This document shows positions 1 through 12,807 of a stretch of DNA of 12,807 bases, piece by piece. The position numbers and the translations under genes are program-made. The stretch's first letter is position 1; every line of letters starts with the position of its first letter. Source of the stretch: Entophlyctis helioformis (taxonomy: Eukaryota > Chytridiomycota > Chytridiomycetes > Chytridiales > Chytriomycetaceae); the NCBI GenBank assembly GCA_025526915.1, contig JAHLKH010000433.1, positions 1 through 12,807 of the forward strand, read 5' to 3'. The notes beneath the pieces are model-generated. The model saw only the letters and a list, made by a program, of their open reading frames with translations, did no database searches and had not been told where the DNA came from.

Positions 1-40
1 CGTAATCGGCCAGCCGAGCACGCCTTGCAACAGCAGGAGC

Positions 41-3000
41 ATGCCGAAGCTGCCGACACACGCCGATGGCACAGACGATCGCACTGCGGCATCTGCTCTT
101 TGGATGTTGCCATCCAGTCACGTGCCTTCTCACGTGACCCGCCATCGCATTAACCGAATTGGTGATGGTCCCGGCCGACCTGACGGGTCACCAAGCAGTC
201 GAGGTTGGTGGCACTTGCTGATATGCGTGGTCCACTGGCCGTCCATGCTTGCTGCTGACTCGAACCGGCGGCGGTGGTCGTGGGATGCGCTGGTCAACCG
301 TAGGTGTCGGTGGTCTGGCAATGGGCGACGGAGATTCAGGCATTCACGGCTTCGGTGTGCTGCTCGCTCTCGAGCTGCGGGAGCATCCCAGAGCACTGCC
401 GCAGGCTTCGACATCTGCACACAGTCGAGTGTCTGGCACATCATCCTCGAGAACAACGCCGCATCCACCACCACCACCACCACCACCACAGACAGCACAG
501 GCAGCACAGGCAGCACCGCCAGGCCCAAGCCATCAAGATACAGCTGCTGGCTCACGCAACCACGCGGCCAGCTTCATGGCCCATCTTGCGCTGGCTGCAA
601 CGACCTGGTTGTCTCGCATGTGTCTGCCAACATCCATGACCTCCTTGGCCATCCTGCAGCACCCCTTCTGGGCAGCTCGTTCTTGGCCCTTCTGCGGCAC
701 CCGGCGGCGTTTTCCAGACTGTTTGGAGCCTCCCCAAACCCTCACCCGACGGCTCGGAACCGTTCTGCGTCCCAATCGACGTCCAGGATGGAACGGGATC
801 TTGGCGTGAGGCAGACGCAGCGGTCCATTGGATCGTGCTTCCGGACTCTCCCCGCCAACAGCAAGCGCAGCCGCTCCAACCGCTGCTGTTGTCCCAGGAT
901 GGCGCATCGTGCGGCCAGTCGTCTCCCGGACCTGTGCCACAAGTATCAACCCAGACCCGACGCCTGAGACTCATGGTCGAGATCGACATTGCCGACACCC
1001 GCCAACTGCCGCGTTTACCAAGCCGCTCCACCTTTGTTGTCGACGCTTCGGACGCCCGCTTCATCACTCTCCCCACTATCCAATCCGGGTTCCACAAGCA
1101 GCCATCGCTGCTGTTGGACGTCATCAGCCGCATCGAGGCATTCATTGACGAGCTTCCGACCGTCGAGCAGCGGCTTGTCTTCATGGCGCAATCCATACGG
1201 CGGATGGTCAACTTTGACCAGATCACCGTGTACAGGCTCGGCAATGAGATGGACATGAGCATCATGTACGAAGAAGAATACGACTCAACCGGCCGCAGAT
1301 TCAATCAGTCTGGCTACAAGGCTGCAAAGTTTGGTTGGTGCACAGTCATCTTCATGCGATGCTCGGAAGCCTGCTTGATGGAGACATCTTACCATACGTT
1401 ATGCATCCCAACCAGCCGTGTCACAGACGGGTTGGCAGAGCGCCGTTTTCAAAGTCTGGACGCGTCTTGTCGAGGACATTATTGCCCCTCAGTCCAACAT
1501 TCTGGCACATGCTTCTGATCAAGGCGTGTCTGTTCCCCTGGACAACTGCATCTTGCGCCCGTTGGCACCTTTCCAAGTTAGCTATGTGACCAAGATCGGC
1601 TCGGTATGTTGCATAAACACACACCAAATGTATCGCATCCGACTTGATGGGTTTCTTGTGCATCGTGATGCACCCACGCGCTTCAGCATGCAAAGGAGCC
1701 CCAAACGGCTAACGCCCTGTATCAAACGACACCATGCCGTGACTCAACCACCAGCGGGCCGTCTTTTCCATGCGTCTCTACGCCTTTGGCGTGCCATGGG
1801 CCTCGCTGACACTACACTGCACGGCCCCTACGCGGCTGCCGTTCTCGTGCCTTCCCTTTTTCAAGCTTCTCGCCGAAAACTTTTCGCGATCTATCGAGCG
1901 CGCCATTCTCAGCGACCAGCTCCACTCTGAGCGTTTCGTCGCTGACCAGACACTTGCATTGTTGCGCACAGAGGACCAAGCGGGCATGGAGCTTATCGAA
2001 CCTGAGCGTGTCCGAAAAACCGCTGCCGTGCGCCTTGCCGCGTGCGTTTCCCACTTCCTTCCCGTGTTCTCGGCAGGTATGCGGCTATTCCCATCACCTC
2101 CCCGCTCTCCACCTCGTTGGATGTGTTTGACCACCGTGCCGACTCAACATGTGGTGCACCAGCAGCTTTTACTCACACTTGTCTTGATCCTGGATAACAA
2201 TGCTCTTTGCAACCATTTCGTTGTTGCAGACGCTGCCATCATCTGCCTCCGCAACGACTTTGAGATCCTTAGTCCCTATGGCAGCAGAAGCAATCAAGAG
2301 CTGAACCTTATCGGCCTCTATTTGATGCAGCAGTCCATCAAGTCTCTGTTCATCTCGCGTTGTTGCGAGCGTGACTGTCCGCAGGCGACCCGGGTTGTCA
2401 ATGGCAAATCCGAAAGCGTCTTTCGAGATTTCTCAGGCCTATTGCATATCCCCTTGTCGGCCTCTGGAGACGCATTCATTAGTTTTCTTCGCCGCCAGAA
2501 CTTGGAGGTATGTTGTGTGTATGCATATGTGCATGAGCGGTTTTCAGCATATCATGCGTATGTCGGCTGGACGCGCGCATTGATCGCATACTCCTGTCAG
2601 TTTGCTCGAAGCTTTCACGTAGACACTAGCGAAGCGTCTCTGGAAGATCAACCGAACCAGTTTCCTTGCAATTCATGGGCTGTTCGAGAGGAAAATCTGG
2701 CCAAGCTGCTGCAGGTTGTCTGCTGGTCCTTTGTCGGCTCCCTTCAGGAGCGCGAGTCAGGCTTGCGCAACGAGCAGCTCAAGACAATCATGCTTGCCAA
2801 TGTCAGCCATGAAGGTGTGCACCAACACGTCGCCCCCACCTTTGCACTGCTGCTGGGCCGCCACGGGCAAACCGTCCAGTTTTGAACTCTAATCCTGAAT
2901 GCTGTTTCCTAGTACGGACGCCCTTGAACGCCATCGTCAACTTTCTGGAAATGATGATGGACGACACGTCCAAAGAAACCTTTTTGACGTACTGGACCTA

Positions 3001-4716
3001 TGCCCACGACGCGTCTCGGTCAATCACACACATCATCAGTGAACTGCTGGCAAGTACATAGTCCTTGTGTCTGGCTGTTTTCATTGAGGAGTGACTGACG
3101 CTCCTTCATCGGCATCACTTGTTTTCATTGCCCAGCTCATCACGCAAACGGACTGGGGACGAATCTACCTGCGCAACGAGCCTTTTCGAATTCTGGACTG
3201 CATCCAAAGCTGCGCGGGAATGTTTGACGTCTTGGCCAAGAACCGCAACCTCGAGTTTTCCGTGTTCATCAATGACTCCTTTCCAGACTTGACTGTTCTT
3301 TGCGACCAAAGCAAACTCCGGCAGATCCTCACGAATCTGGTAAGTTTTTGGCAGTTGAGCAATGAGCGCTGGCACGTTTGTTGCACGCGGCTCATCTCTC
3401 GACTCCTTGCGGTGCTTTGTACACTTTGCAGCTTGGCAATGCAGTCAAGTACACTGAGAAAGGATTCATCAGACTCTTTGCGAATGCAGCCGTGTCTGGA
3501 GAAAGCCATATCAGGCTTGAGCTGCGCGTTCAGGACTCGGGGTAGGCCTGCTTTGGGGCTTCAAATCAATGACTGTGCATGCGTGCTGATTTGCGAACCT
3601 TCGGTTGTGGGATGCCAAGTATGGGCATTCCTCAGGACAAGCTTATATCCGTCTTTAATGCTTTTGAGCGCATCGAGCAAGTTGGCAAGCGGCGACAGAT
3701 TGAAGGCACTGGGCTTGGCCTTGCCATTTGCCACAAGTTTGCCAGCCTGCTGAATGGGTAAAGATGGCGCATGCCCGACCTTGATCGGCAACCAACATAT
3801 CATGGCGAGATTGCAGCTGACCGTCACTTTATGTCTCTTTCCAAACGCGCTTCAGATCGTTGACGCTGGATTCGACAGAAGGTGTAGGGTCCATCTTCAC
3901 ATTTACTGCCGAGCTGGCATTGTATCGTGCTTCTGCGAGCAAGCCCGACCGTTTGTTGAGCCAAACGTCTTCGGACACGCATCCCATGACTTCTTTGAAT
4001 GTGCTCGTGGCAGAGGTATGTATGCAAGTTTGCTAGTTCATGACCATGCATATGTCTGTGCCTGCTGTGCCATGAGTGCTGATACACTATTCTGACGCCG
4101 TCGACATCCACAGAACAACGCCGTCAATCAACACGTGCTCATGAGTCGGCTCGCAAAGGACGGGCATCATGTTTGTCTAGTGGAAAATGGCGAGGAGGCC
4201 GTGGATGCGATCGCCCAATACGTGCGCCATCAACAGCTGCCAGGCAACACTATCGAGTTGGCGTCAACTGGGTCTGTAAAGTCTACGCTATCCAGCAGCG
4301 TCGGGTTGTCAGCCATGGACAGGATTGATCTGGTGCTTATGGACATTGAGATGCCTGCTCTCGACGGCCTGGAAGCTACGCGTCGCATCCGCAAGCTGGA
4401 GCGGCAGTTTGGCACGGATCGTATTCCCATCATTGCCGTAACAGGATCTGTGAGCAATGAGGACAGCGGACAGTGCATCTTGGCTGGAATGGACGGCTTT
4501 GTTGGCAAGCCCATCGACTATGGCTTGCTGCGCGCAATGATTCGGCATGTAAAGGAAGGATCGTGGCAGGAGCAGCGTGCCATGAGCACCTATAGGGATG
4601 GATGGAGCGATAGCGCTTCGCAACCCGTATCAGCGCAGGCCGAGCTGAAAGGCCGCTGGCTGGCTTCCTCTGGCTGGCTTCCGTTAGAGATCGGCAATGA
4701 CCGTGCTTCAATGTAA
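41..4716 (+). CDS. Phytochrome-like hybrid histidine kinase (PAS-GAF-PHY-HisKA-HATPase-REC), multi-exon
   Basis: Hybrid sensor kinase with the domain order of fungal phytochromes. PAS remnants lie at about 560-720 (VSANIHDLLG) and 960-990 (LRLMVEIDIAD). GAF runs from about 1110 to 1900 and PHY from about 2230 to 2640 (GLLHIPLSASGD). The HisKA H-box NVSHEVRTPLNAI has its His codon at 2808-2810. ATPase motifs are ILTNLLGNAVKYT (N), DSGMGIP (G1) and GTGLGLAI (G2). The receiver has Asp at 4342-4344 in LMDIEMP, Thr at 4441 and Lys at 4507. Exons placed by phase and gap-free alignment: ..1333, 1416-1603, 1755-2076, 2230-2507, 2601-2814, 2913-3049, 3136-3339, 3432-3541, 3620-3757, 3856-4015, 4114-4716; from 1333 onward the reading is uninterrupted. 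The start is uncertain: 41 is only the first Met of the PAS frame, the E-boxes at 119-136 argue for a later start, and the frame breaks once at about 715-760. A His-to-Asp phosphorelay role is inferred from the family. The bilin pocket looks degenerate, so light sensing is doubtful. Confidence 0.88.
119..136. promoter_or_regulatory. Pair of CACGTG E-boxes
   Basis: Two perfect CACGTG palindromes lie at 119-124 and 131-136, 12 bp apart start to start and so roughly on one helical face. The flanks read GTCACGTG and CACGTGAC, the extended form preferred by many group B bHLH factors (general family knowledge). They lie upstream of the recognisable PAS coding sequence, so they may belong to the kinase promoter if translation starts downstream. 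Confidence 0.45.
465..516. repeat. CCA microsatellite plus short 9-bp repeat
   Basis: Eight CCA units at 465-488 are followed by CAGCACAGG at 493-501 and 502-510 and a partial copy at 511-516. If translated it gives poly-Thr, poly-Pro or poly-His depending on frame. It is therefore a likely place for replication slippage or sequencing indels. Confidence 0.85.
2508..2600 (+). other. Stop-free 93-bp intron at the PHY tongue
   Basis: It starts GTATGT, ends TGTCAG, is phase 0 on both sides, is a multiple of three and has no in-frame stop. Splicing joins FLRRQNLE to FARSFHVDT and removes the stretch where phytochromes carry the tongue hairpin with its W-x-G motif. Retention would insert 31 residues. 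The splice-site quality supports an intron; the alignment alone does not fully decide. Confidence 0.6.
3050..3135 (+). other. GC-AG spliceosomal intron in the kinase gene
   Basis: The 86-bp intron begins GCAAGT, the classic context of non-canonical GC-AG introns, and ends CCCAG. Both sides are phase 0. The junction gives ISELL followed by LITQTDWGRI, which aligns residue for residue with the HisKA helix pattern DLLDFSKIESGKL. The nearby GT at 3054 would be phase 1 and does not match the phase-0 acceptor. Confidence 0.75.
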
Positions 4717-4755
4717 ACCATGATTATACGCACATCAAGATACCACTGCTGCTGT
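4717..4755. other. Short convergent intergenic gap
   Basis: Only 39 bp separate the TAA of the kinase (4714-4716, + strand) from the TAA of the HbrB gene (4756-4758, - strand). Any normal 3' UTR and poly(A) site of either gene must lie inside the other, so the transcripts should overlap antisense at their 3' ends. I see no clear AATAAA signal in the gap. Confidence 0.8.
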
Positions 4756-6082
4756 TTACTCCAACTGCGTTGATCCCTTTCGGACCTGCTGTCGCAGGAC
4801 AATGATCAGGTCGCACATTGCCTTGTGCTTTTCATCGCCCGTCAGAGCAGTTGACAGGATTAGCAGCATCTGTGTCAGACGGGCAATGACATCGGCACCC
4901 ATGATGCTGTGCTCGACTGACGAGAACCGCCGGAGGAGCATCTCTGTTGTGTGCGTAGAATGCGCACGGTGTCTCAGTTGTGCAGGCATTGCGATGTATA
5001 AACCACGTCCATCAGAGACCAAGCGCAGTGTTTGCACATAAATGTGCCACACATCAACGTGCGCGTCGAAACACACCTTGCAGCCTCGATCGATTAGGCC
5101 AGACTACATAGTTGCGGAAGGCTATTATGGCCAGTTTGCGCACGTCAATCTTGGTGGCAAGACCTGTGTCAGGGTTTGGAATGTTGTACATGGCTGTGTG
5201 GCGCAAAGGAAGAAACACGGCCTGAAGCAGCGGGACAACACATGCAAACATGTGTGTCCATGCATCGGCCAGTCTGCTTGCCAGAGCCTCGTTGGAGGAC
5301 GCGCTCACTCGGCTTGTGACGGATGTCATGCCTGTCTTGAGAAGCGTGCTAATGTCATCAAGCACCGCCTGCATGCTTGCCACGTCGAAGATCCAGCGCC
5401 TGAAGTTGCCAAAACCATGGTCAGCTCAGCTCATGCCATGCATTGCCTTGGTTGGATGCCCCATTTGCATGCATGTTCTCCATCGTTGGTCGGAGAGCTG
5501 TGGGTCGCCTATCCACTTACACAACAAGCAGGTTTGCCTCTTCGATTGTCCCTTTCAGTGTTTGGCCCGCAAAGATGGGAAGCACCTTGTCGCTGATGAG
5601 CTGCCACACATGCCCAGCATTTTCGTGGCTGCCGTGGCCAACGTGGATCGAGACACCAAAGCCAAACGCGCTCGACTCGACCGAGCCGCGAGAGGATCCG
5701 GTGTTTGACGCGCCACGAAGAAGGCTCTGTGCTTGTGGTGCGACGCTCGGCCGCGCTCGGCCAACAGCCTCGGGGTCCGTAAAAGTGCGGGCAAGAGGAA
5801 TGCCGACACCTATGCCACCAGCCCTCATCGTTGACGTGGCCGCAAAGTGCCCTCCATTCACTGCGGATACTGAAGTGGCCGCGGCTCCGCTTCCAGCCAT
5901 GACACCATCGACAGACGTGGTAGACATGCCCAAAGACAATGACCCCTGCCCGGCACCCCCGGCTGGACATGGTATCCCGACGTGCGCGGCTGCGTGCTGC
6001 TGCCCAATGGGTGTCCATTGGCCGAGTTGGACAGTTTGCGTTGCTGCTGGCCGCTGCTGGCATCTCTGACGTGCGATGCCAT
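4756..6082 (-). CDS. HbrB/Bit61/PRR5-family TORC2 subunit
   Basis: HbrB-domain protein; relatives (yeast Bit61, fission yeast Bit61, mammalian PRR5/Protor) are accessory subunits of TOR complex 2. The N-terminus (about 6082-5610) is a Ser/Gly/Ala-rich, probably disordered segment. The HbrB domain starts at VWQLISDKVLPIFAG and continues through LLKTGMTSVTSRV, WTHMFACVVPLLQAVFLPL, IDVRKLAIIAFRNYVV and IARLTQMLLILSTAL. Exons: ..5521, 5399-5077, 4943-4756. Introns 5400-5520 (GTAAGT donor, phase 2) and 4944-5076 (GTGTGT donor, phase 1) join the domain without gaps. Start choice: an uninterrupted reading starts at Met 5927 and gives about 305 residues. A better ATG at 6082-6080 opens a Ser/Asn/Gln-rich leader that enters the same frame if the C-run at 5956-5960 lacks one base. 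The stop is 39 bp from the convergent kinase stop. The second intron's acceptor is the least certain junction. Confidence 0.8.
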
Positions 6083-6129
6083 CTTCACGGGATCGAGAAC
6101 AAGTGGTAATCTGGAGGTAATAATGTATT

Positions 6130-8865
6130 TTAGGTTTCCATGGCTGCTGCCGGATGAACCGGATCGCTCGCCTTGGGTTGGTTGTCACGGTCTTCTTCTA
6201 CTGGCGCTAAGCGGCATGCCTCCAACTCGGAGCGAGGCGACTGCGTCCGGTCTCCCAAGCTTGACGCGCTCGAGTCGCCCATTGTCGATGATGCAGAGCC
6301 GGATGTTGCTGACGTTGGCTTGCCAGTCTCTGCTGTTCCCAGGCGTTTCTCGAGCGCTTTGATATGATCGCGAAGCGCTTGCATTTCTGCTTCTTGCTCG
6401 GCCTTGGCGTCTTTGAGGACCTTGACGTACTCATAGGCTATGGTCCAGACAAGACAGAGACATTAGCCACCTATATAGGGCTGGCCAAGTGCGGACAGAA
6501 GCGATAGCATGGCGAGCAAAAAACACACCTGCTCGCATAATGTCGATTTTTGAGGGCATCTTCTCAGCCATGGGCGGAATGATGTCTCGCATGTCGTCAA
6601 AGTACTGCTTCAGCGTGTCACGACGGCGCTGCTCTGCCTGCTTGTGCGTATTCTTTCGGGCTCCCATTCCAGATGTCAGTTCAAAGGGGTTGGCTGGGCG
6701 TCTTGAGAGTGACAATCAGCCGCCATATCCCAAGTTGGTGAACCGTGTCAGTAACAAGCAAACACGCACCAAAAGAGTCTGATTCAAAGCGCACGCTATC
6801 CACTTACTCGACCGTGATATTGCCGATGCTTTGGTAGTTGCCGCGTTCGCCAAGCTTGAACTCAACGTCTGGGTGCATTGCGACATTCGGGAGCAGGGGC
6901 TTGAGCGCTGGGCGATGGCTTTGGCGCAAGCTTCCCTGACGGCGGCTGAGGTGCCTTGACGGACGAGTCCGGAAACTTGAATCGCGCCATGTAGCAGGGT
7001 CCATTGGCGGAATGGAGCCAACGGAAGTAGCTTGGGCTTCGACATTGTGGTCGGCTTGTTCTGAGACGACTGTGGGGGAGGCCTGCTCAAGGTTATGTGG
7101 CTGAGGCTGCTGCTGGAAATCTGACTGGTTACACGAATCACTTGACGCCTCGGCGTCCGAATGAATGTCCATGAGCCAAGCAGGAGTCGCGCGCACAATG
7201 CCTGCAGGGGGCGGGAGCATGAGCAAGAGCAGGAGCGGGAGCAAAGTCCGAGCCAGACGCAGACAATGATCGGGTGGTTGTGGCTTTGTAGTGCCGGTTT
7301 CGACCGTTCGAGAAGGAAAGTTGAGAAGCGCAGGTCAGCATAGAGTCAGCAGCATGTCAGTGGATCTTTGAGCAGGATTGGATCTCCATCCTTTCCAGAG
7401 ATTGCTTTGCCTACCTCCTGAAGGTCCCGTGGGAGGCAGCATGGATTTGTATGCCGGTCCTTGGCCGCCGTGCGATGCAGCAGCAACGGCAGTCACAGCA
7501 GCCAGCGCAGCAGCAAAGTGATCCTGGCCAGAGCCTGCGGAGATGGGGCTTTGAGTACGGGACACGTTCAGATCGACGTGTGGCATGACACCGCCGACCG
7601 AGGGAAACATTGAAAAGACGTCGGATCCCATGATGAGCGGCGAAGGCATCGCCATGTCTGTCGAGGGCGGAAGCGTGTCGAATGAAAGATAGGCGCCAGA
7701 CGTGTACGGCGTTGCAGCTCCGCGTGCGGCAGAACCAGCCGGCCGTTCGGCGGGGGAAGATATTCTATGGATCGACATGGAGTTGACGCCCGTGATAAGC
7801 GGCGATTGCGATGGCGGCAGGTGTTTGCGAGGGACAATGTAAGGCGAGGCTTGGGGCCGGCGCCATGCCTGTGAGGGCGGGGTGCGATCAATGACTGGTG
7901 CACTTGGAGGCGAAACGACGGCAGGCGAATTGGATTTGCCAGATGCGGAAGGCGTCGCCGATGCGATCTGCGAGGAATGCTGGAAATGCTGCAGGTGCTG
8001 CTGAAAGGACTGGAACGACGAGGATGCCGTCGAGTCGCCATTGACGGCGATGAGGTGAGGGGGCTTTGCGCCTGCAGAGTCTGACAGCGAAAGGAGCGAT
8101 GCAGGCAGAAGGTTGGCGGACAGTGCATTGGCAGCAGCCATTTGATCTTGGCCGCATCAAGCTCAGATCGATGGTGGCCAGCGACGCAGCCAACATGGCG
8201 GCGGCAGCGGCGGCAGCCATCGCTGCCGAGGCAGAGGAGTGCTGTTGGGTGTTCTGGGTCTGCTGGGTCTGTTGCATCTCTGGGTCTGCTGGTCTGCTGG
8301 TGTTGTGGGTGGGGATGCTGGTAGTACGGCTTGAGTGCCGGAGAGGCCAGGCTTGGAAAGTCGTCTGGAAGCGCTGGATGCGACGAGATCGACATGTGAT
8401 GAAAGCTGCTGACGGGCGTCGCTGTGAGAGAGGGCGAGAACATGAGCAGCTGGACAGGGCACGGCTGGTCAGCGGGGGTGGTTTGGCCATGCGTCAAGGG
8501 CGAGGCACCGAGCAGCGATCAGAGCGATGTCGCTCCTACCTGGCTCGAGTGATGCTGCTGAGCCTGCTGCTGAGCTGCTGAGCCTGCTGTTGCTGGTGCT
8601 GCTGGTGCTGTTGGTAGCGACCAACGTTCAAGGCGTCGACAGACGACGCCGACAGCGAGGACGGAGCCGTTCGAGACAGACCCACAAACATGGACGGAGT
8701 GGCTGCCGCCGTTGTCGACACATAATGCTCCAGCGCCATCAGCTCATCACTCTCTTGAGGCCGCTGGTGGTGGTGGTGCTGCTGCTGGTGAATATATTGC
8801 TGGTGATGCTGGTGAATATATTGCTGGTGATGCTGCTGGTGATGTGCTGCTGCTGCTCATACTGC

Positions 8866-8897
<32 letters not shown>

Positions 8898-8972
8898 CAT
8901 CAAGAGGCCAAAGTCGTGCTGCTCCTGCTCCTGCTCGGCAGATGGCGAGAAGCCCGACGGTGCCCTGGACAT
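6130..8972 (-). CDS. Gln-rich bHLH-leucine zipper transcription factor
   Basis: Nuclear DNA-binding protein. Proposed exons: 8972-8540, 8449-7415, 7201-6808, 6701-6529, 6437-6130. The N-terminus carries a polyglutamine run, two copies of a YIHQHHQQ-like octapeptide and a Ser/Pro/Ala-rich middle (for example DDFPSLASPALKPYY and MPHVDLNVSRTQSP). The C-terminal basic region reads ARKNTHKQAEQRRRD. Its His-Glu-Arg pattern at basic positions 5, 9 and 13 is that of group B bHLH factors, which bind CACGTG. Helix 1 is LKQYFDDMRDIIPP. Intron 6438-6528 (phase 1) splits the domain just before AYEYVKVLKDAK, followed by a zipper ending ALRDHIKALEKRL. The family member is not identified; AEQRRRD plus FDDMR resembles fungal Pho4/NUC-1 types, which is only a hint. 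The 3' three exons are clean; the two 5' exons show frame breaks near 8860, 8590, 8310 and 8155, so the N-terminal reading is approximate. Confidence 0.8.
8784..8831. repeat. 24-bp tandem repeat, two copies, in the bHLH gene
   Basis: Identical units at 8784-8807 and 8808-8831 (core GGTGAATATATTGCTGG on the + strand). On the minus strand each encodes the octapeptide YIHQHHQQ in the frame leading into the SDELMALEHYV segment. The unit length is a multiple of three, so copy-number change would keep the frame. Confidence 0.85.
8838..8900. repeat. CAG/CAA polyglutamine tract
   Basis: A run of CTG/TTG triplets on the + strand, read as CAG/CAA on the minus strand, encodes about 12 consecutive Gln, then Tyr-Glu and more Gln in the N-terminus of the bHLH protein. 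The CAG/CAA mixture suggests selection for Gln rather than a pure slippage product. A frame break follows at about 8860. Confidence 0.85.
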
Positions 8973-9157
8973 GGTTGCACTGGTGGAGGGCTGTGATGAT
9001 GATGATGATGGGTAACTGCACAGGTTGCTGACGATTCAGGCCTGCCAAAACAACAATTTTTTTTGGCTTTTTCGGATGGCGCCGACGATGGTTGCACGGA
9101 AAATGCTTATCGCCGGCGGGGATGGTTCATGCGGCTGAACTGGCCGTGGCCGCCAAT

Positions 9158-9213
9158 CGTGAGCGTGTGAGTGAGCGTGTGAGCGTGCGTGAGCGTATGT
9201 GTGAGCGTGTGTG
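9158..9213. repeat. GAGCGT/GTGAGC microsatellite
   Basis: Imperfect array of GAGCGTGTGA-like and GTGTGAGC-like units in the divergent promoter region. It is purine-pyrimidine alternating in places. No coding explanation fits, although frames remain open through it because of the repeat. Confidence 0.75.
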
Positions 9214-9306
9214 AATATCTGGACTGACGGCTGTCGACCTGCGATGGGCCTTGTGTGTGTGCGCTTGCTCGCCTGAGATCGATCTTGGCTCGTCCGACCA
9301 GTGGAA

Positions 9307-9387
9307 GCCAGCCAATCAGCGCACGTCCACCAAGCCAGCCAATCAGCGCACGTCCACCAAGCCAGCCAATCAGAGCACGTCCGCCAG
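9307..9387. repeat. Three tandem 27-bp repeats each with a CCAAT box
   Basis: Units at 9307-9333 and 9334-9360 are identical; the unit at 9361-9387 differs at three positions. Each begins GCCAGCCAATCAG and continues to CACGTCC. The CCAAT pentamers lie at 9312-9316, 9339-9343 and 9366-9370, about 110-170 bp upstream of the LTN1 ATG. The context CAGCCAATCAG matches the extended NF-Y/HAP consensus. Open frames through the array are a consequence of the 27-bp (9-codon) period. Confidence 0.85.
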
Positions 9388-9479
9388 GTTCGAGTCAGTC
9401 GACGAGGATGTCGTGTGCACGACATCGATCCGCGATTCGCCAAGCGACGTGCGACTGCCCATACAAACGAACAGCAGTC

Positions 9480-12400
9480 ATGGCAAGAAGGAAACCAAGC
9501 CGCGAGTCAAGGGCAACATGGCGCCTGCCGCTAGCAGGTGAGCCGGGCCGTGCTGCTCCCTCGCCGAGGACTGTTCTGTGCCGCCCTGCTCTGCGCTCGA
9601 TGCTCTTTGTCTGCGCTGGTTTGGCTGGCAGCCCCTGTGCTGGCCTGCTCATGCGCCAGCAGACAGCCCTGTGTTCCGGACACCTAACCTCACCAACCAA
9701 CCACTCCGCCAGCCGAGCTGCCGAGCTTCTTGCCTCTACTTCTGGATCTGGACCGGCTGCGGCATGGCTTTGGCTTTGGAGCTGGTGCTGCTGGAGCTGG
9801 AGCTGGTGCTGGTGGCGCTGGATTCGGGTCTGGATTCGGATCAGGAGCAGCTGCAGGCACCACCGGCGCTGGCGGCCCTGGTTACAGCAGAGGCCCTCCT
9901 GCTCTGGCCTTTGGAGCCAGCTCGGCCGCTGCAGCCACGCTTGCATTCGGCCACAGCCAATTTGCCGCGCTTGACTTGGGTGGTGCGTCGACTTCGAGAG
10001 CCGCAAGCGCATCGTCGTCTGGTTCTGGCGCTGGCGGCGCAGGAGGTGGTGCTGGAGCCATGGGCGACGATCACTCCCACCAGAGCGGCCTGCACCCCGA
10101 TCTGCGAGTCATTCTCAAGAAACTTGCAAAGAGAGACACCACCACCAAGCTCAAGGCGCTCGATGAATTCAACGCCTTTGTTGCAGAGCACCAAGACGCG
10201 GCAGATCTGCAGAGCCTTGTGCCGACTTGGGTAAGCGCCGTCGTTCAACACGCACTGTTGTTCAACGTGCCTGCCAGCCGCATTCTTGCACATTCCCGAT
10301 GAGATGCAGGTGATTGATGCGACCGCTGATTCTTGCACTCTTGCTTTGGACCGCGTTGCACATCTGCCATCATTCCCATCGTCGCTCTGCACCCATCCGC
10401 CGACGGATCGGCATTGCAACAGCCGAGCGTCTACTGCCGTCTCATTGTCGATCCAGATCGTCGCATCCGTGAAGCAATGGCGCGACTTCACGCTGCCATT
10501 GCCAGGCTTCTTCAGAAACAGCTCGCGCCTATCCTCAAGGACATCATTGGGCCATGGATGCTCGCACACTACGATCCCTCAAAGGAAGTCGCCAGGCTCT
10601 CCGCAGACGTTTGAGACAACGTTCCCAAACAAACGCTCCAATGTTGTGCAGTTTTGCCAGTCTGCCATCGTATCGTATGTCTCGTCCAACATTCTCGACC
10701 AGACTCCCGAAACCATGAGCGATCCGCGCTTTACCACGCCGGAAGACATGGCCTCCAAGTTCTCGCGCGTCGTTGCTGCCTCGTTTGACATTCTCGGTGG
10801 CCTCGTTGGTGGGTGGATGAGTAGTGCTTGTCGTTTCAGGAAGCACTCGCATTGACACCACCTGACTGACTGCACCACCAACCGTTGCTCATCATGTCTG
10901 GCCGGTGTGCACTGGTTCATCTGCCTCTGTTCTGCCTACAGAGCTGCTGACCAAGGAAAACATGGCTCTGGAGCAGGACCAGTACGACGCTCTGTTTTCC
11001 AACTCCCACTTTTGGGCTCGTTCTGGCCACGAATATCCGGCTATTCGCCGTTCCTGCTACGTCTTTATCAAAACCTGTCTTTTGAATATGCCTGGTATGT
11101 CAGTATGCACCAGTCCAGCCTGGCGGGCAGGCCGGAAAAGGCTGCACGTGATGCTGCCAGTATGTATGCATTGACTGCAATCTATCCACTGACGATCCTG
11201 CCGACAACACGGTGATTCAGACATTGTCGAGAAGCACCTGGATTTGATTTCGTCGACTTTCCTCGCAAAGGCGTTTCTTGACAAGACTCCTTCAACGCAT
11301 GCCGATCTCTGGAACGCTGTCTTGCTCCTGACAAGACAGTTTCCGGCGTCATGGAAGCTAGCGTCGGCCAAAAAGTCGGTTCTTGGCCGCTTGATCGCGT
11401 TCCTGTCAAACGGCGCGTACGGATCCGTCAGCGCCTCGTATCCTTGTCTGCTGCCGCTTCTCGGAAACCTTCCGATGCAGGTGCGTCCCACTTGCCATTG
11501 TTTGACATTCACAGTTTGCACGACCAACACCTTTCCAATCTCCGCGCGGCTACAGATGATCAAGGAAAACGATGCGGCTTTTTGCAAAGACTTCTTTGCT
11601 GCTTTCTGGAAGGGTCTGGATGCCGTCGAACGCCCGTTTGCGACAATGGCCGTTGATGCGTATTTTGAGTGTCTCCTGTTCCTCATCACCCGCTCTTCAC
11701 AGCTCCCTGAGGCGGCTGCGCTCCGGCTGATGCACACGGACGCATTCCGACCTCTGCTCGCGCATCTCTTCCCATTCAAGCAGCTGACCGATGCCAAGAC
11801 ACGTCTCAGACCAGAGGACGTCGAGTCTGTGTTTGCTTCGTTCTTGCTTCGCATGTGGACATCGCAGTCGGTCACCGATCACCAAAGAGCACAGTTCAAG
11901 ACCAAGCTCGACGAACTTCGTTTCGCTTGGCGTCTCTCAGTCTATGGTGCACCTGCATCCGCAGCAGTCACATGCTCAAGATTACCAGCCTGAATTGCTG
12001 GACGATTCTGATATGGAGGCTGTTTGTGCTCGTCTTGCTGGCCTGACCGTCGCCATCGATAAGGCTGCCCAGTCTCTGCCAGGCGGCGCCACACCCGCCT
12101 TTACTGGCTTTTTCAGCAGCACCGTGTGCAGCATTGTCCAGCATGCCATCAGCGGCATCTCCAGACACGCAAAGCAGGCCGCGCCAGCCGCAACCATGGC
12201 AACTGTCCCCGGCAGCCTCGCGTCTCTCATCGCGTCTCTGATGGCTCATTTCGGCACTGCCATCATTGCTTCACCTCCCGCTGCAGCCGCTGTCTTGACC
12301 TTTCTGTCGGGCGACGCACTGGATGCTATTCGCAGCAACGCAGCATCACCATTTGCCATGTCGCTCCTAGCCGCCACCACATCGGTGTTTGCCACGGTGT

Positions 12401-12807
12401 GCAGCATCAAACCCGACGTTGCACTGACTGAGAAGACCAGGCTCTGTGGGATTCCCTCATGGATGCCGTCTTTGATGTTCCCGACGACCAACTCAAGCTC
12501 CGCGTGCTGCACTCGATCGTTACCAAACCCACAAAGTCCGCCCTCGCAACCATCATCTCCACCAACTGCAGTCTGCTCGACAGCCTTGTCGAAAAGACAG
12601 TCAGCGAGGGCAACCCAGCAAGTCTCCGTATGCCGCCGAGTGCATTGCCGCGTTCTTGCGCACCACACCCGACGAAAGCATTCTCTCCGACAGGGCCATC
12701 CACGACGTCATCTCGACCATCAAGACACCCTCATGTCGGCCTCCCTGTCATACTTGTTGTCCGCAACAAGCACAGCCACGCGGTGTCGGCGCGTCTCATC
12801 AGTCGCA
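9480..12807 (+). CDS. LTN1: Listerin/Ltn1 E3 ubiquitin ligase, N-terminal part (runs off the window)
   Basis: Listerin is the E3 ligase of ribosome-associated quality control: it binds 60S subunits with Rqc2/NEMF and ubiquitinates stalled nascent chains. The N-terminus GKKETKPRVKGNMAP followed by SSRAAELLA matches the listerin signature. Then come a Gly/Ala/Phe-rich tract, LHPDLRVILKKLAKRDTTT, DPDRRIREA, GPWMLAHYDPSKEVA, ETMSDPRF and the HEAT-like segment containing SYPCLLPLLGNLP. Exons: 9480-9537, 9713-10230, 10423-10808, 10942-11094, 11221-11480, 11556 to the window end. Introns 9538-9712, 10231-10422, 10809-10941, 11095-11220 and 11481-11555 join family-conserved residues without gaps (for example VPTW to PSVYCRLIVDPDRR). 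Only roughly the first 900-1000 residues are present; the C-terminal RING domain is missing. The frame breaks at the start codon and near 9765, 10605, 11925, 12430, 12625 and 12725, which suggests assembly indels, though decay cannot be excluded. Confidence 0.88.
9768..9865 (+). repeat. LTN1: Gly/Ala/Phe low-complexity tract in LTN1
   Basis: Codons repeat GGT/GCT/GGA with TTT/TTC to give GFGFGAGAAGAG-like and GFGSGFGSG-like peptides. Listerins have a short GFGxx motif after the RAAELLA signature; here that place is expanded into an FG-like tract. A frame break just upstream, near 9765, separates it from the RAAELLA exon frame. Confidence 0.7.

What the first reader, a model, noticed from the sequence alone, without database searches (positions are those of the whole stretch)
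1110..2640. Phytochrome photosensor with degraded bilin pocket but intact kinase output
Seen: in gap-free alignment of the spliced GAF/PHY product with classical phytochromes, the PASDIP motif reads AVSQTG (the Asp matching DrBphP Asp207 is Gln) and the SPxH motif reads APFQ (His260 position is Gln). The PRxSF tongue motif reads FARSF, losing the Arg that pairs with that Asp. No Cys-x(n)-PGxIQPHG motif is recognisable. Tyr263- and His290-equivalent positions look kept. HisKA, ATPase and REC motifs are complete. Paired loss of both salt-bridge partners suggests a coherent change of function, perhaps a bilin-independent or differently liganded sensor in a phytochrome scaffold.
Basis: partly seen in the sequence, partly recalled or inferred. 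Interest (0 to 1): 0.75.

Follow-up and report, generated by a model that had tools for sequence, protein, structure and literature searches.

The report
Blind-looking phytochrome kinase in a chytrid
A chytrid fungus carries a multi-copy family of red-light-receptor-type enzymes that keep the kinase half but have lost several features that hold and use the light-absorbing pigment, so they probably sense something other than red light.

Summary
The window is a short contig of the chytrid Entophlyctis helioformis; a 98.9% identical copy lies on a 142-kb contig. It carries an 11-exon gene for a PAS-GAF-PHY-HisKA-HATPase-REC hybrid histidine kinase of fungal phytochrome descent. Corrections: FARSF is not PRxSF; it aligns with the first tongue strand, and the tongue is shortened (30-37 residues against 43-49), so PRxSF is deleted, not mutated. 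Whether Gln or Lys replaces Asp depends on the alignment register. REC has one acidic residue changed. The PAS domain is frame-broken in the window but open in the sister contig. At least four loci in E. helioformis, three in Polyrhizophydium stewartii and one in a Batrachochytrium share such changes; two canonical queries found no canonical phytochrome in the genome. Best reading: a light-independent, phytochrome-derived hybrid kinase. A photoinactive fungal phytochrome (A. fumigatus FphB) is already published, so this is a new variant of a known kind.

The parts
285..970 (+). PAS domain region (N-terminal), frame-broken in the window, one open frame in contig C57
   Evidence: weak PAS_2 match E 0.12, below cut-off,
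973..1333 (+). end of exon 1 as an unbroken frame: PAS end and first half of GAF, ends YKAAKF (Lys codon 1327-1329)
1334..1415 (+). intron 1, GT-AG with an unusual GTTGGT donor
   Evidence: gap-free with P0002 and P0003 around the junction; 12 frame-keeping alternatives, one of the same length, listed
1416..1603 (+). exon 2, GAF: AVSQTGW (Gln codon 1424-1426), Arg 1463-1465, Arg 1556-1558, APFQ (Gln codon 1574-1576), Tyr 1583-1585
1755..2076 (+). exon 3, end of GAF (His 1815-1817, Cys 1818-1820) and connecting helix
2230..2507 (+). exon 4, PHY domain with SRCC (Cys codons 2361-2366) up to the shortened tongue
   Evidence: intron 2077-2229 agrees with the public model P0001 and with P0002, P0003
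2601..2814 (+). exon 5, FARSF (first tongue strand, not PRxSF), end of PHY, HisKA start with phospho-acceptor His 2808-2810
2913..3757 (+). exons 6-9, HisKA and HATPase (2913-3049, 3136-3339, 3432-3541, 3620-3757); intron 3050-3135 is GC-AG
3856..4716 (+). exons 10-11, linker and REC domain (3856-4015, 4114-4716), phospho-Asp 4342-4344, acidic pair E-N at 4013-4015 / 4114-4116, stop codon

Best explanation
A phytochrome-derived (group VIII / Fph) hybrid histidine kinase of a chytrid, one of a small chytrid family that has given up the canonical photosensor chemistry. Shown here: PAS-GAF-PHY-HisKA-HATPase-REC order, descent of the kinase with fungal phytochromes, absence of the PAS Cys segment, SPxH His and PRxSF tongue segment, and a different residue set conserved in three genera. 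Inferred: it works in the dark as a dimeric kinase whose PAS-GAF-PHY module responds to a cue other than red light (redox state of the conserved cysteines, temperature, a small ligand, or a partner kinase), changes HisKA-to-REC phosphorylation and feeds the phosphorelay and stress MAPK route described for fungal phytochromes (PMC12607886, introduction).
For: Sensor part against PDB sequences: 67 matches at E <= 0.1; the 60 listed are named bacteriophytochrome, Cph1, sensor or histidine kinase, or near-infrared fluorescent protein, best E 1.7e-7. hhalign of five family rows against 14 canonical rows: probability 100, E 3e-45 over PAS-GAF-PHY plus a HisKA tail. Kinase core: four family rows and nine fungal phytochromes separate from nine generic kinases and one bacterial phytochrome at 100/100; the quick tree with seven family rows says the same at 99. 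Sensor tree: seven family rows one clade, 100/100. Aligned Cys in 15 of 15 canonical rows, no letter there in the three family rows that reach the region. Gln for His in 7 of 7 family rows. Tongue 30-37 residues in six family rows against 43-49 in 15 canonical rows. GAF/kinase identity ratio 0.61-0.68 in two family pairs against 1.26-1.46 in six canonical pairs: output held, input freed. Still constrained: GAF identity to four relatives 36-52%; dN/dS 0.18 between the two contigs (12 synonymous, 7 nonsynonymous codons of 905). No canonical phytochrome by two full-length queries. Precedent: A. fumigatus FphB lacks the Cys and GAF/PHY motifs and is photoinactive (PMC12607886: abstract, introduction and passages).
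Against: Seven of 15 pocket positions keep the canonical letter in this gene, among them both propionate-anchor Arg and His290. The sensor tree does not fix the family's place: grouping with the two bacterial phytochromes is not rejected (p-AU 0.44). The good AlphaFold model (mean pLDDT 70) is of P. stewartii P0002 and had 25 canonical or other non-family rows in its 30-row alignment; a family-only alignment of five rows gave a poor model (42.6). The heme-oxygenase negative is weak: the same kind of search also missed Hpt, which fungi are expected to have. The start codon is unproven, so an upstream exon with the Cys is possible. REC has one acidic residue changed. No expression, spectrum or activity data.
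Confidence: 0.72

Rival explanations
1. It still binds a tetrapyrrole (biliverdin, heme or a porphyrin) non-covalently, in a re-shaped pocket with Gln at the His260 site, and is an unusual, perhaps non-photoconverting, light or heme sensor.
For: Tyr163, Arg209, Arg241, Tyr250 and His277 equivalents (PaBphP numbering) are kept in this gene; the Arg209 type in 6 of 7 and the Arg241 type in 5 of 7 family rows. PDB holds D207A, D207H, D207L and H260A DrBphP entries.
Against: PAS Cys segment, SPxH His and PRxSF absent; no heme oxygenase match (weak test); A. fumigatus FphB, also without Cys and GAF/PHY motifs, gave no bilin signal in E. coli (PMC12607886, passages).
Confidence: 0.18
2. It is a decaying pseudogene or an assembly artefact.
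For: The window contig has many single-base differences from C57 and its PAS frame is broken; a paralogue on C268 has Tyr at the phospho-His.
Against: C57 carries the whole open gene; the public model P0001 matches it exactly in two blocks of 302 and 379 residues; dN/dS 0.18 between the contigs; 43-49% overall identity to four relatives in other genera.
Confidence: 0.05
3. It is a regulatory partner that works mainly by heterodimerising with its own paralogues, some of them kinase-dead, rather than by sensing a ligand.
For: At least four loci in one genome, one with HisKA His to Tyr; A. fumigatus FphB and FphA form heterodimers (PMC12607886, abstract).
Against: No canonical FphA-like partner found in this genome; GAF conservation across genera suggests a function of its own.
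Confidence: 0.2

Closest known systems
Aspergillus fumigatus FphB (photoinactive phytochrome, group VIII hybrid histidine kinase; PMC12607886: abstract, introduction and passages)
   Same: Fungal phytochrome architecture with kinase and response regulator, missing PAS Cys and missing GAF and PHY motifs
   Different: FphB stands beside a photoactive FphA and has Met at the Cys position. Here the N-terminal Cys segment itself is missing, no canonical phytochrome was found in the genome, and the changed form is a multi-locus chytrid family. FphB's sequence was not compared here.
Canonical fungal phytochromes (FphA / PHY-1 type; here P0008, P0009, P0132-P0215)
   Same: Domain order, kinase clade, overall PAS-GAF-PHY profile
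   Different: Cys, SPxH His and PRxSF absent; tongue 30 residues here against a canonical median of 45; no Pfam PAS_2, GAF or PHY match to this protein at E <= 1
Quaeritorhiza haematococci light-sensor kinase (P0010), a chytrid phytochrome
   Same: Chytrid; fungal phytochrome group; SRC at the SRCC site
   Different: Keeps Cys, PASDIP and PRxSF; has Tyr at the His260 site
Bacteriophytochrome evolved from light to redox sensor (Vuillet et al. 2007: title seen in a reference list; paper not held, content recalled)
   Same: Phytochrome scaffold re-used for a non-light cue
   Different: Bacterial; not compared

Membership tests
Fungal phytochrome-type hybrid histidine kinase (group VIII, Fph) by descent | PAS-GAF-PHY followed by HisKA-HATPase-REC | tested here: met
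Fungal phytochrome-type hybrid histidine kinase (group VIII, Fph) by descent | Kinase core in the fungal phytochrome clade | tested here: met
   100/100 branch (treekit warns of long branches meeting in the generic group and between groups); a grouping of the family with three generic kinases is rejected, p-AU 5e-5
Photoactive (canonical) phytochrome | Bilin-binding Cys in the PAS N-terminus | tested here: not met
   No letter at the Cys column in C57, P0002, P0003; Cys in 15 of 15 canonical rows. An unseen upstream exon cannot be excluded.
Photoactive (canonical) phytochrome | PASDIP Asp | tested here: not met
   Gln or Lys in this gene, by register
Photoactive (canonical) phytochrome | SPxH His | tested here: not met
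   Gln in 7 of 7 family rows
Photoactive (canonical) phytochrome | PRxSF in the PHY tongue | tested here: not met
   Segment deleted, tongue shorter
Photoactive (canonical) phytochrome | Bilin adduct and red/far-red photoconversion | not testable with these tools
   Needs purified protein
FphB-like photoinactive phytochrome | Photoinactive, heterodimer with a photoactive FphA | not testable with these tools
   Photoactivity needs protein; no FphA-like gene found in the genome
Active hybrid histidine kinase | HisKA His, N box, G boxes, REC acidic pair, phospho-Asp, Thr, Lys | tested here: inconclusive
   Present by reading the model except one REC acidic residue (E-N where four relatives have E-D or D-D)

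The most novel reading that the evidence does not exclude
In Entophlyctis and Rhizophydiales chytrids an ancestral phytochrome was turned into a multi-gene family of non-light hybrid kinases: the pigment pocket was re-tooled around a conserved Gln, a conserved Lys-Phe-x-Val-Ser stretch, a pocket Cys and a vicinal SRCC dithiol in PHY to read a redox or ligand signal, with no canonical phytochrome left in the E. helioformis genome and microbial rhodopsins remaining for light.
Probability: 0.3. Interest if true: 0.7.

Novelty: new variant of a known kind. Interest (0 to 1): 0.5.

Why it matters
Such genes can be counted as red-light receptors (UniRef names one relative simply 'Phytochrome') or be overlooked (Pfam sees only the kinase and receiver; the public gene model starts in exon 3). 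If the family is light-independent, it is a conserved, multi-copy natural case of a photoreceptor scaffold kept for another cue, and it bears on the suggestion (PMC12607886, introduction) that temperature sensing in the dark, not light, may have been the ancestral phytochrome role.

Tried and rejected
Heme oxygenase: PF01126 gave no match in the genome. The same kind of search found no Hpt either, although fungi are expected to have Ypd1, so the negative is not evidence of absence. PAS_2 gave none at E <= 10, although this gene has a PAS domain, which again shows the limit.

The second protein search, with the family alignment, was swamped by generic kinases (177 hits, 120 listed, no new family member seen in the list). 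Relatives therefore rest on one search, which scored 7993 candidates and listed 12 proteins. All three protein searches scored capped candidate lists.

Placement in the sensor tree stays open: the family with Quaeritorhiza, or with the two bacterial rows, is not rejected (p-AU 0.38 and 0.44). The stem branch is long (2.12). The careful kinase tree dropped C268, P0004, P0006, P0009, P0010, P0011, P0135, P0145 and four generic kinases of the 35 rows, to remove long or redundant rows.

A family-only AlphaFold run gave a poor model (mean pLDDT 42.6) and was not used for a fold search.

Rows left out of motif counts and trees: the second C8 gene (its TPSF at the His site and degenerate kinase were read by eye), P0005 and P0007 (taken as other models of the same P. 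stewartii genes), P0001 (this gene, truncated). The C268 and C247b rows are joined exon pieces. Motif counts use 15 canonical rows: 5 of the 12 hits and 10 (355 hits, 120 listed); the structure alignment used ten more. P0010 was left out of the conservation count, where PaBphP made the fifteenth row. The list of 15 pocket positions is recalled; its numbering agrees with the PaBphP row printed. Positions 190-203 (5 of the 15 used: 190, 194, 195, 196, 203) depend on the register; the seven that this gene keeps do not lie there.

Literature: nine searches listed no paper that I recognised as describing these chytrid proteins; the library holds open-licence papers only. PMC9616733 (passages) reports phytochromes across fungal clades by searches seeded with Neurospora PHY-1 and PHY-2; PMC5285503 (passages) lists the VIII/Fph group in early-diverging fungi; PMC10219052 (passages) and PMC3569864 (passage) added nothing on this point.

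Full report
What the window is. The window is the whole of contig C433 of a 29.6-Mb, 482-contig assembly. A second copy of the entire window lies on contig C57 (98.9% identity over 12,841 columns). P0001, named Entophlyctis helioformis BC831DRAFT_435696, lies on a contig of 142,147 bases, the length of C57, and matches the C57 gene model exactly in blocks of 302 and 379 residues. So I take the organism to be E. helioformis, a chytrid, and C433 to be a haplotype contig. The two contigs differ by many single-base length changes. In the phytochrome gene these fall in the PAS region, which is frame-broken in the window and open in C57, and in one intron; none lies between window positions 1110 and 1600.

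Gene model. Eleven exons on C57 give 1131 residues: PAS, GAF, PHY, HisKA, HATPase, REC. One intron is GC-AG. Intron 2077-2229 was added because the public model and the relatives P0002 and P0003 lack the residues it would encode. The public model starts in exon 3 and so lacks PAS and most of GAF. Twelve synonymous and seven nonsynonymous codon differences separate the two contigs over 905 codons, dN/dS 0.18; none of the eight residue differences listed is in the GAF domain.

The motifs. In an alignment of seven family rows and 15 canonical rows the His of SPxH is Gln in 7 of 7 family rows; 14 of 15 canonical rows have His and Quaeritorhiza has Tyr. The Cys of the PAS N-terminus is present in 15 of 15 canonical rows and absent in the three family rows that reach that region. 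The C8-1-type and C268 paralogues, read by eye, begin MPHNEATIQSHG and MSGAAIQSHG, also without Cys. The PASDIP Asp is missing in this gene, but the register is unresolved: KFAVSQTG against KFPASDIP gives Gln351, YKAAKFA against YPASDIP gives Lys346. The two ungapped scores are close (3.3 and 2.34). In both models of the relative P0002 a helix starts at the residue matching Gln351, which favours the first, in a stretch of low confidence. In that register P0002 and P0003 have Glu, and the C247b paralogue may keep Asp.

A family, not a single oddity. In E. helioformis the gene has two relatives in tandem on C8, near-copies of one of them on C247, and one on C268. Whole-protein queries with two canonical-type phytochromes (P0010, 11 matches; P0136, 22 matches) hit these loci or, at receiver-domain positions, three other contigs; only best candidates are scored in such searches. 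The genome has microbial rhodopsin matches on C51 and C54.

How it probably works. The GAF domain is conserved among relatives (36-52% to four relatives), so it is not simply decaying, yet relative to the kinase it is much freer than in canonical fungal phytochromes (identity ratio 0.61-0.68 in two pairs against 1.26-1.46 in six pairs). Lys346, Gln401, Cys432 and Arg561-Cys562-Cys563 are invariant in the five rows. I infer a light-independent hybrid kinase whose sensor reads another cue; a thiol switch at the cysteines is attractive but untested. Against full bilin independence, both propionate-anchor Arg positions and the His290 position remain in this gene.

What is known. A. fumigatus FphB lacks the Cys and GAF/PHY motifs and is photoinactive as expressed in E. 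coli (PMC12607886: abstract, introduction and passages). So a blind fungal phytochrome is known. New here are the multi-locus chytrid family, its own conserved residue set, the missing N-terminal segment and tongue piece, and the lack of a canonical partner in the genome as searched. Nine literature searches of an open-licence library (listed under Tried and rejected) showed no paper that I recognised as describing it.

Verdict. Real, conserved and mildly surprising; a new variant of a known kind. The photochemical claim needs protein.

Noticed in passing
L011 (G000:C268:16000-25000), reverse strand, about 2.9-7.3 kb of the reverse complement: Another family locus; its HisKA reads ANISYEVRTPLN, Tyr in place of the phospho-acceptor His, so it looks unable to autophosphorylate.
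   Followed up: partly
L008 (G000:C8:1-10000): Two tandem family genes; the second reads TPSF at the SPxH site and its HATPase looks degenerate (read by eye).
   Followed up: partly
L009 and L012 (G000:C247): Near-copies of the first C8 gene at both ends of one 32-kb contig in opposite orientation; inverted duplication or misassembly.
   Followed up: no
window 1-12807 against G000:C57: The two contigs differ by many single-base length changes, also in neighbouring genes, so frame-based reading of this contig is risky.
   Followed up: yes
window 5054-6197, minus: HbrB-like gene (TORC2 subunit type).
   Followed up: no
window 6431-6715, minus: bHLH transcription factor exon.
   Followed up: no
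window 9688-12807, plus: Listerin (Ltn1) N-terminal matches at 9688-10855; the gene seems to run on towards the contig end.
   Followed up: no
window 4013-4015 and 4114-4116: REC acidic pair is Glu-Asn across an intron where four relatives have Glu-Asp or Asp-Asp.
   Followed up: partly
P0010, Quaeritorhiza haematococci: Chytrid phytochrome with Tyr at the SPxH His; the public model lacks the rest of its GAF domain.
   Followed up: no
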